Source: Perkinsus marinus ATCC 50983 (taxonomy: Eukaryota; Perkinsozoa; Perkinsida; Perkinsidae). From it: a DNA stretch of 64,000 nt. Below the pieces are notes generated by a model. That model had not been told where the DNA came from. It did no database searches and saw only the letters and a program-made list of their open reading frames with translations. Made by a program: the position numbers and the translations under genes. The DNA lies in NCBI RefSeq assembly GCF_000006405.1, contig NW_003211319.1, positions 64,459 to 128,458 of the forward strand. The letters run 5' to 3'. Below, one piece after another: positions 3,072 through 61,000 of the stretch (position 1 is its first letter; each line of letters begins with the position of its first letter).

Positions 3072-5769
<2,698 letters not shown>

Positions 5770-52800: not shown

Positions 52801-55800
52801 ATCGTTTTCCACGAGTTTTTACTAGTGTTTTCCACATCGCAAATGAAACTCCATTACACCACTAACCAGAAGCACGTGTTACCTCCTGAATGATAGTATC
52901 CTCCTTCAACTCGATACACCTTAACACAAAGGGTACTAGAACCTCACTAGCGTCATTTGCTGTTATGTTGTTGATAAACAGATCAAGATTCCGGATTAGA
53001 ATCGTTACACATTCTGAAATGACAATGCTAATACACCAGCAGCATCAGAATCCTAACGATACGATACGTGCCAACTTGATATGCAACTGCGTGTTAGGAA
53101 TTAATGATAATGAACAATATGTCGCAATAACAACCTCGAGAGGTTACTTTTATCATATCACATGTTCAACAATGGAGTTTCACGACCCGTTTTACGTGAA
53201 GTGGCGTCGTAAAACTCGGTGAAAAATGCGATATTCGCGGTGATATGCAGTAGTCGTGAAATACGTTTTTCATATCACTAGGGTGGTGAAACTCCAATGT
53301 TAACATAGTTTATGAGAGTCTACGCATATTTCCTACATTTGCATATCAAATTCACACGCACTATAATAACATACAAAAACTCCTTTTTCCTAAACTCACC
53401 AACTGATATCTCCTTCGCGCTGAATAGTGGCTTCACTCGAGGCCATATTCTCGCCTGAAAATACTGCGGGTCGCAAACTCCTTCGTATTTCAACGCCATC
53501 AACAAACACGGTAATGTCGCCGACCACAATGCGGAGAAGGAAAGGGCGAGCTGAGAATTACCATATAACAACGACAACTACTGCTGCTGTTGCACGCATG
53601 CACAAAAGATTCTCACATCTGCAAGTGGAGGTAATATTCGTTCCCTTACAAGATGTGGACTAGCAACAAGCGGACACGTTTTATCGCTCAGCAGTCGAGG
53701 GAGTCCTGAAAAGCCATAACTACTCAACAAACTCATCCTACCAGAAGCACCCCGAAGTGATTACGATAAACCAGCACCACCACGACAAATCCACGTCAAT
53801 GTTGTCTTCGCTTCGCTACATTTTTAAGAAGATAATTCAAATTTCCAGTAGTTCGTTAAAACCAATCGGAAAAAACGTTACAAAAATTCCATTTTTACAC
53901 AAAAAGTTGGTAAATTATCAAAAAATTTTGGGGAAAAATGTAAGTGACTTCCAAGTGCTGTATTTCTCCCATCAGATGTTTACCTCTCAAGAATGCTATC
54001 CGAGCCGCATCGTCCTTCTCCGAAAGCGTTTCTAGGAACCTCAGGGCCTGCAATAAATTCACAAATTCGCGACAAATTTACCACCACTACAAGGGTCTGC
54101 TTATCCATCAGTTTTGAAATATACGTTCGCTTTCCTTAGCTGCAAAGCTCAAGAGTTTCTCCGCTATAGCAGTTCACATACGAGTTAAAACAAGAGTTTT
54201 CAGAAACCACCAATGATTTTCCCAAAATTTTTATATTGGCAGCGACACATGTGCACATTTTCGCATAAAAACAACTCGTGCAATAGCAACACCAACAACT
54301 ATTCATCCCTCGCTGCTCGCCATCCTCCCCAGGTTACCTTTATATTAATATCATTGAAATATTCCGAGCTTAGGAATGCTTCCATCGTACACCTCCTAGT
54401 TGGCTCCAACACCGTCATCGACTGGAGTAACTAACACACACACAGAGGAGATCAAATTCGGAGAGTCTTCCTAGTATTATTAGAATCTATGCTCGCTTTC
54501 TTCACCCGAGCACAAGTTCACATACATAAAGTTTCTGTCTACTTCTACTCGAACTTAGAAACCAACAATAATTTTCCTAAATTTCCTCACTAATCATCTA
54601 GTTCAACCGAAAACCACCCCCCCCCCATCACAGTAAACTACAGTGAAAAGCAGTGCGTTGTCAATTTGATTATCTCCTTGCTTCAGCGGCAGTGCTCTCC
54701 TAACACTCAAAAGCTGCATAGTAGAGTGATGTGAAATAAGCCTTACTGAATTTCCCTTTGGTGAACAGTGGGATCAGCCCCAGGAGTGACTCGCGAGAGC
54801 AGAGGTTGACGATCCCTAGAAAAGAGCTCGTACCTGAGGAAAATATAACCTCGATAATGTGCATATAAATATGAGAAGAAAGGGTATCGGTTTATGCATG
54901 TGTTAGTGAGCAGGTCCGAAAGAGATAGAGTAAAGGACAACCAACGATAAGCTCGGAGGCTTTATCCTCTCCCAAAGAAAGGAACAACAAGCAACGAAAA
55001 AATTCGAAAAAAACAGAAAAAAACAGAAAAAACAGAAAAATAAGAAAAAAAAACAGAAAAAAGAGAAAAAACAAAGAAGCAGAAAAAATAAGAAAAAAAA
55101 TTCACACACGACAGGAATTCGAATCAGCGTGGTATGTACTTACGCTATGAGGCCGAAACTAAACACGTCACTGCACTGCCCACAAGAACTGCTGTAGCCG
55201 GTGGTCATCTCAGGAGCCGCATATCTGTGGATAAAAATGCACCCCCCAGGGATCGAACCCGGGTGTACCTTATGGGAGGCTCGTTTAATACCATTCCACC
55301 AGCCATCCCTCCTATTCCTCTAAACTTCACTTGGCACGGCACCATCTTACCCGGCTCTACTGGTGATTGACTATACGCCATTCCACCCAACACCCATCGA
55401 CCATTTGGAGTGATGAAGATCTGAATTATTACACTCACATGAACTAAATCATATTATAAACATCACTTACCGCACTAGGGCACAGACCAAGGTGACAAGT
55501 ATTAGCATGATGAAGAAACTCTAGAGCCGACGCAACATCCAGTAAACCTGAGACCATATTCCCGGTATTGCTGATGATCGAATGACCGATACAATATATG
55601 CGCATATATTTAAAACTACATGTGTTGTTAATAATATGAAAATTCTGAAAAAAATTTCGGCAAATTCTTGTTGGTTTCTATACACTTCTACTCGAATTCA
55701 TATGTAAACTTGTATAATTAACAAGGAAACTCCCGAGCTGAGCTGAGGAAAGCGAACATATATTCCTCCAACACATGATATCAGCATTGTACGTCCTGGC

Positions 55801-56756
55801 GTCCACGTGATTAGCCGGCTGACACTACCTGTTTGTATCTCTATCACTGACAATTGTTTCCTATCAGTTGCCAAAATGGTGCCCAGAGTTTGAGTAACAC
55901 GTCTCGTAACAAACGCCATACTCTGACGATCGTCGCTCAGTGGATCTGATAAAATTACGCTCATACCACACCTCTAGAACATCATAGGAGCTCTTACCAA
56001 TCACAGATAGGATATTTGGATGCCGTAGTCGCTGTAGGACGGTTGCTTCTTTATTTAACGATGATAATATCTGATGATGACATGTGCAGGGATCGAACCC
56101 GGGATCTCTCCGACCCACCCTATTCCTGTAATCCTTAGGGTACTGCTTCGTATCAAGCGTTTTCTTCTCGAATAGGAACACTGTTAGACAAGTATCATCT
56201 CCAGCCGGGCCTCCCCCCATCGGTGCTGTTACACTAGACTTTGGTCGCTTCGCGTTATACAACTGAAAATTAAAACTTTACTAGGGACACTTCCTTCCTA
56301 TTGAAAACATGAATACCGGTGCAACCAAAGAAGATCGATTTACCGCAAACTGACAATAGAAATGATATATATAAACGATGATGAAAAATAATGGAGTTTC
56401 ACCACCCTAGTGATATGAAAAACGCTAGTGAAAAATTTATTTCACGACTACTACATACCGCGAATGTTGGCTTTTTCCGCAGGGTATTGAGTCACTTCCC
56501 GTGAAACGAGTGAAACTGCAATATATAAATCTATGAAAATAGCAATAATATATAAATCTATGGAGTGAAACCCTATACATAGTGCTTGGAGTTTCCCACT
56601 GTCACCACTCGGAAAATTCTTAATAAATTTACGATATCTCTCTTAAACTAGTACCTTCCAACGCAGCTCATTTCCATAGCAGGCCGGGTCCTTATCTACT
56701 TGATAGGAACTTACTAGTTTGTTACTAGTGAGGTAATTCAGCACGTTGTTAAACAT
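49833..56756 (-). CDS. SCYL2: SCYL2-like (SCY1 family) pseudokinase, about 15 exons
   Basis: SCYL2 (CVAK104) is a catalytically weak kinase-like protein with HEAT repeats that works with clathrin adaptors at endosomes and the Golgi. It starts MFNNVLNYLTSNKLVSSYQV (56756), then DPACYGNELRWKLYNAKRP, CLTVFLFEKKTLDTKQYPKD, SLNKEATVLQRLRHPNIL, GRWVLGGMAYSQSPVEPG, YAAPEMTT. HEAT-like exons follow (FTRLPLLQRRFEYTTLQHVL at about 52360-52222; VLDNTTVVGVLLKALTETTG; IVAALGDIYEKISENLGAKL). The C-terminus is low complexity with adaptor-type motifs (FAPMKNRK, DLLSSGADDF, DEDPFAGLL) and stops at 49833. No catalytic HRD or DFG was seen, as expected for SCYL2. Introns are crowded with family A and B repeats, and two mini-introns carry T-arm motifs. 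Confidence 0.9.
50646..50800 (-). repeat. Family B repeat copy
   Basis: Fills most of a SCYL2 intron downstream of the exon ending SGASLSSHR; the boundaries TGTTGG and CCAACA are both intact. Confidence 0.75.
51009..51170 (-). repeat. Family B repeat copy, long form
   Basis: Occupies about 160 of the 199 nt of one SCYL2 intron (about 50989-51187). Confidence 0.75.
51421..51539 (+). repeat. Family A repeat, near-intact 119-bp copy
   Basis: TGGAGTTTCACCCGTTTTAC to CTAGGGTAAAACTCCA. In the SCYL2 intron 51311-51564. Confidence 0.85.
51704..51808 (-). repeat. Family B repeat, partial
   Basis: Centre deleted. In the SCYL2 intron just upstream of the IVAALGDIYEK exon. Confidence 0.6.
51925..52050 (-). 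repeat. Family B repeat copy (first of a pair)
   Basis: Together with the next copy it fills the 322-nt SCYL2 intron 51900-52221. Confidence 0.65.
52059..52200 (-). repeat. Family B repeat copy (second of a pair)
   Basis: Tandem with the preceding copy but clearly diverged, so probably a separate insertion or an old duplication. Confidence 0.65.
52725..52853 (+). repeat. Family A repeat, subtype II
   Basis: Shares TTCCGCG and GATAACACAATCG with the Rab18-intron copy. In a SCYL2 intron. Confidence 0.7.
53173..53296 (+). repeat. Family A repeat, near-intact 124-bp copy
   Basis: TGGAGTTTCACGACCCG to GGGTGGTGAAACTCCA. In a SCYL2 intron. Confidence 0.85.
54113..54265 (-). repeat. Family B repeat, diverged copy
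   Basis: GCAAAGCTCAAGAGTTTCTC and TATATTGGCAGCGACACATG identify it. In a SCYL2 intron. Confidence 0.55.
54490..54600 (-). repeat. Family B repeat, diverged copy
   Basis: CTCGCTTTCTTCACCCGAGC, GTCTACTTCTACTCGAA and ACCAACAATAATTTTCC remain. In a SCYL2 intron. Confidence 0.5.
55010..55105 (+). repeat. A-rich (AGAAAAAAC) tract
   Basis: Imperfect CAGAAAAAA units. The Phe-rich minus-strand frame here is intronic noise in SCYL2. Confidence 0.7.
55225..55268 (-). other. 44-nt SCYL2 intron that is essentially a tRNA T-arm
   Basis: Between donor GTACA and acceptor CCACAG lies CCCGGGTTCGATCCCTGGGG: a perfect B-box and a T-stem of five pairs (one G-U). Ends are fixed by the exon beginning YAAPEMTT. 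Confidence 0.7.
55617..55775 (+). repeat. Family B repeat copy
   Basis: TGTGTTGTTAATAATATG to ATTCCTCCAACACATG. In a SCYL2 intron, antisense to the gene. Confidence 0.75.
56071..56118 (-). other. 48-nt SCYL2 intron containing a T-arm/B-box
   Basis: GTGGGTCGGAGAG, then CCCGGGTTCGATCCCTG (identical over 17 nt to the other SCYL2 mini-intron), then CACATGTCATCATCAG. It splits KDYRNR from ILSSLNKEA, both phase 0. Confidence 0.7.
56392..56520 (-). repeat. Family A repeat, near-intact copy
   Basis: TGGAGTTTCACCACCCTAG to ACGAGTGAAACTGCA. In the SCYL2 intron between the first two exons. Confidence 0.8.
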
Positions 56757-56863: not shown

Positions 56864-57015
56864 GTGTTGGTGACACTATGAAAATTCTGAAGAAATTTTG
56901 AGAAATTCTCGTTGGTTTCTGTACACTCCTACCTGAATTCGTACGTAAACTTCTATAATTAGTGGTGAAACTCCTGAGCTCAGCTGAGGAATGTGAACAT
57001 ATATTCCTCCACCAC
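56864..57015 (+). repeat. Family B repeat, best-preserved copy
   Basis: TGTTGGTGACACTATGAAAA to GAACATATATTCCTCCACCA with an intact CCTGAGCTCAGCTGAGG palindrome. Upstream of SCYL2. Confidence 0.8.
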
Positions 57016-57697: not shown

Positions 57698-58005
57698 TTA
57701 TTTCATTACGTGCTGATATCACTCCCGCTGACAGGGAAAATTTTCGCGCGCGCCACAAAAAAATCTCATTTTTAGCACAAAAATCTTTCTTGTCCGCAAC
57801 AAAAAATTCTTGCTCGCCACAAATCTCTGTGGGCGTGCAAGAAAGACACAGGGTCCCTGCCGCGAGGATAGATGGGGAATAGCTATCGCCAGTTTTCGTG
57901 GGTTTTTGGATTATCTGTTTCTTTGTCTACTTCTTCGACTGTTGAGTTGGCACAAGGCATCAATGGGGAATACAAGGATGAAGGTTATTTTGCATCGCAC
58001 TTGTA

Positions 58006-61000
58006 ATGTCTGGAGGTAAAGACCGTGAGAAATTCAAGGTCTTCATGAAAGCTATGGCGGATGTGGCCGAACGTGCGTTCGGTATAGAATCGAGTAGCGG
58101 CACTCGTGCTAACTTGGCTTTGGAGGCTAGTTCCTTGGCTACTTCTTTGTTAAACACGGAGGCGGAGGTTACGGACGCTGATGATCCTCAGCACCGTCAA
58201 ATTCAGAAGAAAGGACGTACTGCTGCGGTGAAGTATCGGGTTGTTGAGGTTCTTCAATGTGATGAGTTGTCGGATGCTGAGGTCAGACTTAATGAAATCG
58301 TTGGCTCTAAGATGTGTAAGCGTAACTCGTATGTAAGGAAGAAGACGGTCGATGTCACTCGAGACTATCGCTGTGCCTTCAAGGAACGTAGAGGATACGC
58401 TTCGTGTAGTTATACCGCCCAGATATCCTGGTCATCTCGTGGTATCTACAAGATCCTACTCCCATACTCAGAACACGAGGAACACACGAGACTTGAGACT
58501 GCAACCGGCAATCAGCCCTTCTCACGGAGACCTATACCCCTTAGTCAAGAATGCAAGAGAATAATCGATGATCATGTCCTTGATGGTACTCCAGCTTGCC
58601 GCACTGAGAGAAAGCTGATCAAACTGAAGCTCATCAAGAAGCTTACACCGGCTGTGAAACAACAAATATTTAGAAGACGATACACAGTTAAAAAAGCTAT
58701 GCGGGGCGAAGATCGCGTACAGTCTGGCGACACTCTATTGGAAATTGAGGAGTTCTGTAAGCAGAATAGTATCATTCCATCTGACGAGGACCAACCGTAC
58801 TGTATAGGCTACTGTAATGCCTCAAGATTCGAGGCATTTTTCTCTACAAAGCGTTTAATCCAAGAAAATGGAAACACTACAATGGTAGATACTATGGTTA
58901 TCGATTATACACATAAACTGAACTGGCTGGGCCTTGTTGTGGTAGTCTGTGGATGTTTACGTCCACCTTCCCGGTTCGGACTGTTAAGTATTGGCTACGT
59001 TTTGAGCGAGGACAGCACATCGGCCGAGTCGCTCTTCATTGCAGTAAGAGACGCAGCCCGGTCATTGGGTGTTCACCATCAGCCGAGGGTTCTGCTAGCC
59101 GATGGAGCAAGCAGCATCACCCGAGGATGGAGAAGAGTGAGATAGAATTCAGCTCGGGACATTTCTCTGTATTCTTTTTCCTCAGGCTCATGGCCCAACT
59201 AGACCACGAGGACTCATCAAGATGGGCGCGACATTGGAATGGCCAAGCGAGGATCCCGCGGAGGTCTCGAGAACTATTCGCCTAGTGTGCTTTGTACACA
59301 TGTTGAGAGCTGTGGATAAGCGGGCGCGTTCGGACATCACAGCATCAGCCGTGGGAAGCGATTCCGAGGCAACGGATCTTCGCTCGCAGCTGCGAGCTGA
59401 TCTGCGAATCCTCCAGCAAGCACCTACACATAACATGTTTGCCGTGGCATCCCAGATGATGGTATCATACTGGCGTACGCGATTCCCATCGCTTATGAGC
59501 TACTTCGTCAAGCAGTGGCTCGTAAAGCGAGGGTGTTGGAGCCAAGCCGTCTATGGCTTGCGAAAGGATTTAGCTAAACATAATAATTCTCTGGAAGGAG
59601 TAAATTCCGGCCTCAAACGTGGTATGTAGTACAGCGGTTGCTTCTCTGTATACATGGGAGCAATCCACCTTATGTCTCCATTTTTCAGGTAAAATAATTG
59701 CGGGAACCCGACCGTCACAGTTGATCCACGATATCATCGATACATGCCGTGATTTTTCATATTCTACTGATGATGACACCGCTTACGATGGCGCTCCGTC
59801 TCGAGCACAATTGCTCGCTGCGTCAAGATGGATAAACTCTAAAAGCTCTAAACATATCTTCACTGATCGTGATGGGGAAAACTATTATATCCCGAGTGAT
59901 TTCCTTATCGAGCTCGTAGGAGGAGGAGATCGATTAGATCAGCTCGTCAGTGCTTTCCACGAAAAGTGGATAAGATGCTCCCAGGATAGTGCAGTATGGG
60001 GAAACTGGGAGTCCTACAAAAGAGCAATGAAACAAATCCGGGTCGTTTCACGTACAGAGAACGGTTATCCCTGTACGTGTTTCGACTCAAGATTCGGCAA
60101 TTGTCGACATAGTGTCGGAATTCGCTTACTCGAGAACACCTTAGAAGAAAGCTTGGAGAAAGTCCAGCAATTAGGATCTGCTCCCGCTGGTCGACCCAAG
60201 TGAATGACCTTCTCTTTGTGGAGCGTATCTACCGCTTTTCTGCTCTCAGATTCACAACCAGCACAGCACTCGAAGTGGATAAAGACTACAATCGACGCCG
60301 TCGCGCCCTCGTGGATATGGTTCGCGCTACGGCTGGCCCCCGTAAACGACAACTTCCAGCAGGAGCACGAGTAATCGCCCCCTTTTATGATGACATGTCG
60401 GAGAGCTTACTACCTGAGGATTCTCTAGCTGTCGAGCCGGATTCCAGTGGAGATGAAGCCAGTAAGTTTTCGTTCATCATGGACGGCTCATGCACAAAAT
60501 GAGGATACATACATTTTTACCACAAATTCAGGTTTCGATAGAGTACATGATCGTACGGTGCTGGACGATTCAGCTAGTAGCTGGTGCAGTGAATCGGATG
60601 ATGATTCTGATTCGTCCGATTCGGAAGCAGTTTCAGACGGGGAACCTTGTGCGCATAATGATGCCATCCTTCAACAGAGCTTCGAAGGTAAGACCATGTG
60701 CAGAGGGGACCCGGGCGATCACTTTATTCAGGAGTGGATGGCGATCATGGCACGGAGCATAATGGTAGATTTCCTTCTTTATCATCCCTAATGTTGCCTA
60801 TATAGGCTTGGATTCATCCGCTGGATTCTTCATTCACGATGCCGGATCTCAAGAGAGGTCTGCTATAATGGGGGACACGGAAATCACAGGCACACCTCGA
60901 GCTGAATGTGGAATGATGCAGTCACTTGATGTATCGCCAATCGAGCCTGTGACAAACCATTCACCTTGGTCCGGTTCGCAGAGCCTATTAGAGGTAGCAG

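What the first reader, a model, noticed from the sequence alone, without database searches (positions are those of the whole stretch)
55225..56118. Two SCYL2 mini-introns (44 and 48 nt) are built on the same tRNA T-arm
Seen: in both introns the reading frame fixes the splice sites, and both contain CCCGGGTTCGATCCCTG, 17 identical nt, which is a perfect Pol III B-box (GGTTCGATCCC). In the 44-nt intron the T-stem pairs fully. Almost nothing else is in these introns. Established: TTCGATCC with flanking stems is the tRNA T-arm. Inference: introns were created from, or captured, tRNA 3'-end fragments, a route of intron gain I do not know to be described.
Basis: partly seen in the sequence, partly recalled or inferred. 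Interest (0 to 1): 0.88.

Follow-up and report, generated by a model that had tools for sequence, protein, structure and literature searches.

The report
Introns built from tRNA tails
In a Perkinsus (shellfish-parasite) genome, many of the tiny introns cut out of gene messages consist mostly of a short stretch that looks like the back end of a transfer-RNA gene, which suggests that pieces of tRNA genes have been turned into new introns over and over.

Summary
The shared 17-mer is real and belongs to a genome-wide family in a Perkinsus species. CCCGGGTTCGATCCC occurs 98 times (reversed control 0); GGTTCGANYCC followed at fixed spacing by RYATTTTT occurs 225 times (control 0; spacer one base longer 0). 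The 35-nt core reads like a tRNA gene from variable loop AGGTC through B box and acceptor strand to A73 and terminator T5, but it is no tRNA gene: no acceptor partner, no A-box excess, no T-stem covariation. Eleven of 32 elements tested in sense give protein matches across the spliced junction, one of 19 in antisense. Ten of eleven measured introns have only 11-24 nt outside the core. Paralogues differ in intron presence, and three paralogous introns not picked by the 15-mer have lost or changed it. Best reading: an introner-like family from tRNA 3' ends, whose A73-T5 end may double as branch A and polypyrimidine tract. Correction: the 48-nt intron is in frame without a stop. Mobilisation, RNA evidence and sister species are untested.

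The parts
55225..55268 (-). 44-nt GT...AG intron of the SCYL2-like gene, made mostly of the tRNA-3'-end-like core
   Evidence: frame requires its removal; paralogue L007 has the same intron with 2 of 44 differences; PDB alignment runs across the junction with a two-residue gap
55247..55263 (-). 17-mer CCCGGGTTCGATCCCTG, B-box/T-arm-like, in the 44-nt intron
   Evidence: profile match 35.7 bits
55233..55238 (-). A73-like A and T5 at the fixed distance from the B box
   Evidence: read from the sequence; fixed spacing shown
56071..56118 (-). 48-nt GT...AG segment of the same gene, probable intron, in frame and without stop
56087..56103 (-). second 17-mer; this copy has no T5 (CATCATCAG instead)
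   Evidence: profile match 27.7 bits
29343..29375 (-). third exact 15-mer copy in the window (23.7 bits), context not resolved; has a 93% paralogue L058
40720..40755 (+). weaker core match (16.8 bits), context not resolved
4015..4140 (-). 126-nt intron of a proteasomal-ATPase-like gene holding a longer tRNA-like stretch (A-box-like and B-box-like by eye)
   Evidence: not matched by the Rfam tRNA model at E up to 10; no stable fold (z -0.87)

Best explanation
A repeat-derived (introner-like) class of spliceosomal introns. Each consists mostly of a ~35-nt core with the sequence and spacing of a tRNA gene's 3' end: AGGTC (positions 44-48), B box GGTTCGANYCC (52-62), ten bases, A73, T5. Shown: the family exists genome-wide; a good part of the tested copies are introns by protein homology, with the core in sense; paralogues differ in having them. 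Inferred: the copies came from short tRNA-3'-end-like units that lack (or have lost) the 5' half, entered genes, and could be spliced at once because the core often brings AG|GT near its start and, at its end, an A followed by T5 that can serve as branch A and polypyrimidine tract, so that only a nearby AG is needed. After insertion they drift. How they move (reverse transcription of Pol III transcripts, DNA transposition, repair capture) is not known.
For: 98 copies of the 15-mer vs 0; 225 of the spaced pattern vs 0, and 0 with the spacer one base longer; 168 profile hits above 6 bits (building copies included) in about 335 kb vs 0 reversed and 3 on Markov sequence. In the 92 distinct 15-mer copies, not chosen for what follows, the 73-like base is A in 71 and T stands in 61-72 at each of the next five positions. 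Junction-spanning matches in 11 of 32 elements tested in sense and 1 of 19 in antisense; matched by open-frame rank (without near-duplicates) 5 of the first 20 in sense vs that 1 of 19. The core leaves 11-24 nt in ten of eleven measured introns, 40 in L085; shortest P. marinus intron in print 39 bp (PMC3101222, passages). 91 of 133 copies have no collinear BLAST match of 60 nt or more to another copy. Glutaminase: the core intron at PKT^GERVF is in two of four gene copies, the other two read through. P4-ATPase: intron at the site in three close paralogues, read through at eight other places.
Against: No clear target-site duplication: the downstream exon starts with GT in 3 of the 11, by eye; one case (L034) has AGGTGA at both ends; no formal test. 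The 5' half of a tRNA is absent, so descent from tRNA genes rests on the 3' end alone. The open-frame test gave a small excess: 71 of 92 at 20 codons or more vs 65.8 at random positions and 56 antisense; 22 vs 14.8 and 18 at 50 codons. Sense peptides were partly picked by eye; the ten gave no clear case. One of three close P4 paralogues has an intron at the site with no core (L172). Roughly 40% of the high-scoring hits that are not the 15-mer are not obviously intronic (by eye), and one hit is a real tRNA-Ile gene (L022). One copy lies antisense in an apparent adaptin intron (L031). No RNA data.
Confidence: 0.55

Rival explanations
1. The core is a mobile tRNA-like fragment that inserted into, or replaced part of, introns that already existed; it did not create them.
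For: L172 has an intron at the P4-ATPase site without a core; in glutaminase the L060 core intron lies about four codons from a core-less intron of L049; some copies look intergenic (by eye).
Against: Ten of eleven measured introns have only 11-24 nt outside the core, too short to have been an intron by the 39-bp minimum in print (PMC3101222, passages); glutaminase site PKT^GERVF has no intron in two of four copies.
Confidence: 0.22
2. The core is a functional DNA site, a stand-alone B box for TFIIIC (ETC-like), which sits in introns because the genome is compact.
For: The C before the B box is kept in copies not selected for it while the T-stem is free to vary, as for a protein-binding site; fixed distance to T5.
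Against: Paralogous introns that were not chosen by the 15-mer differ inside it: L173 two of 15 including TTCGA to TTCTA, L171 one of 15, L172 lacks it. Sense excess (5 of the first 20 by rank vs 1 of 19) is not expected for a DNA site. Only three unselected paralogous introns were seen.
Confidence: 0.13
3. The core is a splicing signal of this lineage that converged on a tRNA-like sequence.
For: Sense orientation in the introns backed by homology; A-T5 before AG fits a 3' splice site.
Against: No splicing role of GGTTCGANYCC at a fixed distance is known to me; two other introns of the same SCYL2-like gene (50 and 52 nt) lack it; RNA folds are not consistent.
Confidence: 0.06

Closest known systems
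Introners (introner elements), e.g. Micromonas (PMC3488318, passages) and the survey of 3,325 genomes (PMC9860276, passages)
   Same: Many introns of one genome share sequence at unrelated sites; short; mobile-element origin; presence/absence among relatives.
   Different: Most families of that survey are said to fit DNA transposition; here the shared part is a tRNA 3' end, and no TSD or TIR was seen (by eye). The main text of the survey has no occurrence of Perkins, tRNA or SINE; its supplements were not seen, so a Perkinsus family may be listed there.
Introner elements of Amoebophrya (PMC7789003, passages)
   Same: Alveolate relative; intron families spreading in genes.
   Different: There mostly non-canonical introns with inverted and direct repeats; here GT-AG, and no end repeats seen by eye.
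tRNA-derived SINEs, and the p-SINE1-like intron of rice catalase genes
   Same: B box and T-rich terminator; precedent for a SINE-like intron.
   Different: No A-box excess and no SINE body in the small introns. The rice case was seen only as a title in a reference list (PMC3151243); the rest is recalled.
Extra TFIIIC (ETC) sites of yeast
   Same: Stand-alone B boxes without a tRNA gene.
   Different: Here inside apparent spliced introns and changing between paralogues. Recalled, not looked up.
Permuted tRNA genes (PMC3978253, search listing only)
   Same: The 3' half stands without a 5' half before it.
   Different: No 5' half downstream: perfect acceptor partner within 100 nt in 14 of 151 vs 14.5 shuffled.

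Membership tests
Introner | Similar intron sequences at non-homologous sites of one genome | tested here: met
   same core in unrelated genes; 91 of 133 copies without a collinear match of 60 nt or more to another copy
Introner | Copies are spliced introns in coding genes | tested here: met
   by protein homology in 11 of 32 elements tested in sense; no RNA evidence
Introner | Recent gain: presence/absence between relatives | tested here: inconclusive
   met between paralogues (glutaminase 2 of 4 copies with; P4-ATPase 3 with, 8 places read through; ion channel 2 with, 2 read through); orthologues in other species not available; loss not excluded
Introner | Mobility signature (TSD, TIR) | tested here: inconclusive
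   by eye only: no TIR, GT at the start of the next exon in 3 of 11, AGGTGA at both ends of L034 (sequences)
Introner | Sequence similarity reaches the splice sites | tested here: inconclusive
   core is 35 nt of 46-59 nt in ten of eleven measured introns; ends vary
tRNA gene or pseudogene | Cloverleaf with acceptor stem | tested here: not met
   2 of 92 with 6 or more of 7 pairs at the tRNA distance vs 1 shuffled; 15 of 150 perfect partners upstream vs 15.05 shuffled; ARAGORN on 30 of 90 loci finds one tRNA, not at the core
tRNA gene or pseudogene | Paired T-stem | tested here: not met
   1.76 of 3 outer pairs vs 1.83 shuffled in 66 copies; 3.22 of 5 vs 3.28 in 55
tRNA-derived SINE | A box and B box | tested here: not met
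   B box present by selection; A-box-like score of 8 or more in 7 of 93 seeds and 7 of 55 non-seeds vs 48 of 1000 random
tRNA-derived SINE | Pol III terminator or tail at the 3' end | tested here: met
   T5 at fixed spacing
ETC (TFIIIC) site | Bound by TFIIIC without Pol III | not testable with these tools
   no occupancy data
ETC (TFIIIC) site | B box kept by selection | tested here: inconclusive
   three unselected paralogous introns: one change, two changes, no core

The most novel reading that the evidence does not exclude
A tRNA gene's 3' end is a ready-made proto-intron: its variable loop holds AG|GT, and its A73 with the Pol III terminator T5 acts as branch A plus polypyrimidine tract. 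In Perkinsus, fragments of this kind have spread and created perhaps thousands of introns of near-minimum size, a route of intron gain through Pol III signals that I found described in none of my library searches.
Probability: 0.4. Interest if true: 0.82.

Novelty: new variant of a known kind. Interest (0 to 1): 0.7.

Why it matters
Where new spliceosomal introns come from is a long-standing question. If these introns are born from tRNA 3' ends, the source sequence, the splice signals and the mode of spread would all be visible in one compact genome, and presence/absence in the related Perkinsus genomes would test it directly. It would also link Pol III termination signals to splice signals.

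Tried and rejected
Rejected: a conserved RNA hairpin (no covariation; folds not consistent). Rejected: complete or permuted tRNA genes. Rejected: a longer transposon that carries the core everywhere; among 133 copies BLAST clusters gave one 10-member longer repeat and otherwise pairs or singletons. Weak tests: open frames around the core; a hexamer coding score (56 of 92 higher in sense; difference over 10 in favour of sense 21, of antisense 17). A profile iteration drifted to the antisense echo of the near-palindromic B box and was discarded; strand-resolved hits were used. Rfam: window in two pieces and 17 of 90 loci gave nothing relevant. A PDB search for the L034 peptide found nothing at E 0.001, so that case rests on Pfam alone. 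Literature: nine searches (introner with tRNA; Perkinsus with introner, 21; Perkinsus intron splice, 22; Perkinsus SINE, 56; SINE with intron gain, 57; introners with dinoflagellate, 58; Perkinsus genome repeats, 62; p-SINE1 with intron gain, 83; six terms, 84): no title or abstract start in their listings describes tRNA-3'-end introns; I read passages of some papers only. Most subscription journals and all supplements were out of reach.

Rows dropped: 5 of the 98 places (C329, two on C333, C341, C345) were not fetched; L003 and L066 share one stretch, hence 92 distinct of 93. Of only the first 100 of 225 places were listed, and 40 of them were fetched on their own. Profile A1 (79 sequences) left out the longer-repeat loci, near-duplicates, and 15-mer copies without the A or without TT after it, so A1 and its hits lean towards A and T there; the counts do not. 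Of the 20 highest antisense peptides 19 were searched (one near-copy left out).
Full report
What was given. Two small introns of a SCYL2-like gene were said to be built on the same tRNA T-arm. The window is part of a 54.46 Mb assembly in 347 contigs. One ORF of the window is 73% identical to a P. marinus protein and at best 62% over a like stretch to the best full-length P. olseni protein, so the host is a Perkinsus; the species is not settled.

The observation. The 17-mer CCCGGGTTCGATCCCTG is at 55247-55263 and 56087-56103 on the minus strand, inside GT...AG segments of 44 and 48 nt. The 44-nt one has to be removed to join the upstream frame (...NEPPI) to RYAAPEM. The 48-nt one is 16 open codons, so the frame does not force it; spliced out, the best kinase match is 40.1 bits and starts upstream of the junction, read through it is 38.0 bits and starts at the end of the insert. 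Two other introns of the same gene as I read it (50 and 52 nt) do not carry the core.

How common. CCCGGGTTCGATCCC occurs 98 times in the genome, 0 times reversed. GGTTCGATCCC occurs 924 times against 5. GGTTCGANYCC-N8-RYATTTTT occurs 225 times against 0; with N9 it occurs 0 times. That spacing is the one of a tRNA gene: T-stem 61-65, acceptor 66-72, base 73, then the terminator. In 92 distinct copies of the 15-mer, not selected for their flanks, the 73-like base is A in 71, and T stands at each of the next five positions in 61 to 72 copies; just before the 15-mer, A, G, G and T are the commonest bases (55, 62, 63 and 53 of 92). A profile from 79 copies gives 168 hits above 6 bits in about 335 kb, building copies included, against 0 on reversed and 3 on Markov sequence. 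Strand-resolved, 63 of 156 hits above 4 bits are not the 15-mer, 59 of them above 6 bits in about 332 kb; 6 of the non-redundant ones are in the window (one elsewhere is a real tRNA-Ile gene in L022). From this I infer several thousand copies in the genome; the loci were chosen around known copies and some hits are weak, so this is rough.

What it is not. By coordinates none of the 98 places lies in the 63 tRNA genes that the tRNA model listed (that list is a lower bound, and the 40 loci that I fetched cover only some anticodons). Of those 40, 39 were called by ARAGORN; none has the 15-mer, four have GGTTCGATCC. The acceptor strand of the copies has no partner at the tRNA distance (2 of 92 vs 1 shuffled), nor within 100 nt upstream (15 of 150 vs 15.05) or downstream (14 of 151 vs 14.5). 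The outer T-stem pairs do not covary. An A box is not enriched (7 of 93 and 7 of 55 vs 48 of 1000). So the family is kept, or was recently copied, as sequence, not as a cloverleaf.

Are they introns. I spliced candidate GT...AG pairs in scripts and searched the joined peptides. Of 33 peptides from 32 elements in sense, 11 elements gave matches that run across the junction: L075 P4-ATPase, L030 coatomer beta', L061 topoisomerase I, L087 ion channel and L060 glutaminase, L025 HATPase, L074 AAA helicase-like, L049 glutaminase, L034 dihydrouridine synthase, L085 GAS/DRC4 and a kinase in L078 (L049, L060 and L085 also against the PDB; L034 found nothing there). L080 (SAM) stayed below its cut-off, and L003 matched only up to about the junction. 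The elements were partly picked by eye; the ten came by open-frame rank and gave one kinase match below its cut-off (L078, 1639). Taken by rank alone (near-duplicates left out), 5 of the first 20 sense elements span (L087, L030, L075, L061, L074), against 1 of 19 antisense peptides (L031 adaptin). Three of the eleven (L034, L085, L078) are not copies of the 15-mer. The open-frame test on its own was weak. The eleven introns are 46-59 nt, except L085 (75) and L078 (78). Outside the 35-nt core ten of eleven measured introns (L171 in place of L078) have 11-24 nt. Introns of P. marinus in print range from 39 bp, most below 100 bp, GT/AG (PMC3101222, passages).

Gain or loss. Glutaminase: four gene copies on two contigs. 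L049 and L173 have the core-type intron at PKT^GERVF; the other two genes (in L048 and L060) read straight through that site. L060 has a core intron about four codons from a core-less intron of L049, which is ambiguous. P4-ATPases: L075 and L171 share the site and the core, L172 has an intron there without a core, and eight other places, three of them with identical scores, read through the site without a stop. L075 and L171 are nearly identical from the core into the next exon while the upstream exon differs, which looks like gene conversion. Ion channels: two copies with, two distant ones read through. Introns that were not selected by the 15-mer differ in it: L173 in two bases (one turns TTCGA into TTCTA), L171 in one, L172 wholly. 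That speaks for decay after birth, but on three introns only.

Mechanism. Shown: core, geometry, splicing by homology, paralogue differences, and a sense excess in the tests made. Inferred: the core enters genes as a tRNA-3'-end-like fragment and is spliceable at once because it brings an A and T5 before the acceptor AG and often AG|GT near its start. I saw no consistent target-site duplication (GT starts the next exon in 3 of 11, by eye; L034 has AGGTGA at both ends). Whether the fragments move by reverse transcription of Pol III transcripts, by DNA transposition or by repair is open. Longer tRNA-like stretches exist too: the 126-nt intron of a proteasomal-ATPase-like gene in this window (4015-4140) holds A-box-like and B-box-like parts; a 6-of-7 acceptor partner is there, but so is a second one at another distance, so that says little, and neither the Rfam tRNA model nor folding supports a cloverleaf.

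Known kinds. [quoted passage not shown] Its main text has no mention of Perkins, tRNA or SINE. Amoebophrya introners have inverted repeats and odd splice sites (PMC7789003, passages). A p-SINE1-like intron of rice catalase is cited in PMC3151243 (reference list only). My searches of the open library listed no paper on tRNA-3'-end introns.

Verdict. The finding is real and larger than first read. Filing: an introner-like family, new in its tRNA-3'-end sequence. Interest 0.7. The main gaps are RNA evidence, sister species and a genome-wide intron annotation.

Noticed in passing
window 4015-4140 (-): Intron of a proteasomal-ATPase-like gene (spliced reading GSELVQKYIGEGSRM^VRELFVMAREHAPS) that contains a longer tRNA-like stretch with A-box-like and B-box-like parts by eye.
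   Followed up: partly
L057 2571, L051 2592, L025 2730, L033 554, window 41493 and 57655 (+, zero-based profile starts): Other longer tRNA-like stretches with an A-box-like part upstream of the B box (by eye); possibly the fuller relatives of the small core.
   Followed up: partly
L002, L004, L024, L052, L064, L131, L132, L143, L145, L153: A longer dispersed repeat (10 members by BLAST) that includes the core; several members go on downstream with CCGTCATTAAAG-like sequence.
   Followed up: partly
window about 55640-55780 and 56880-57010: Another interspersed repeat (GAAAATTCTGAA...GTTGGTTTCT...ACTCGAATTC...) twice near the SCYL2-like gene, and by reading also in other loci such as L003 and L087.
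   Followed up: no
L075 and L171: Two P4-ATPase paralogues are nearly identical from inside the core intron onward but not upstream, as after gene conversion with an end near the core.
   Followed up: no
L031 1492 (+): A core copy that lies antisense in an apparent intron of an adaptin gene; it lacks the T5.
   Followed up: partly
window 57982-60203 (+): Consecutive open frames that look by eye like a MULE-type transposase with a SWIM-like motif; not tested.
   Followed up: no
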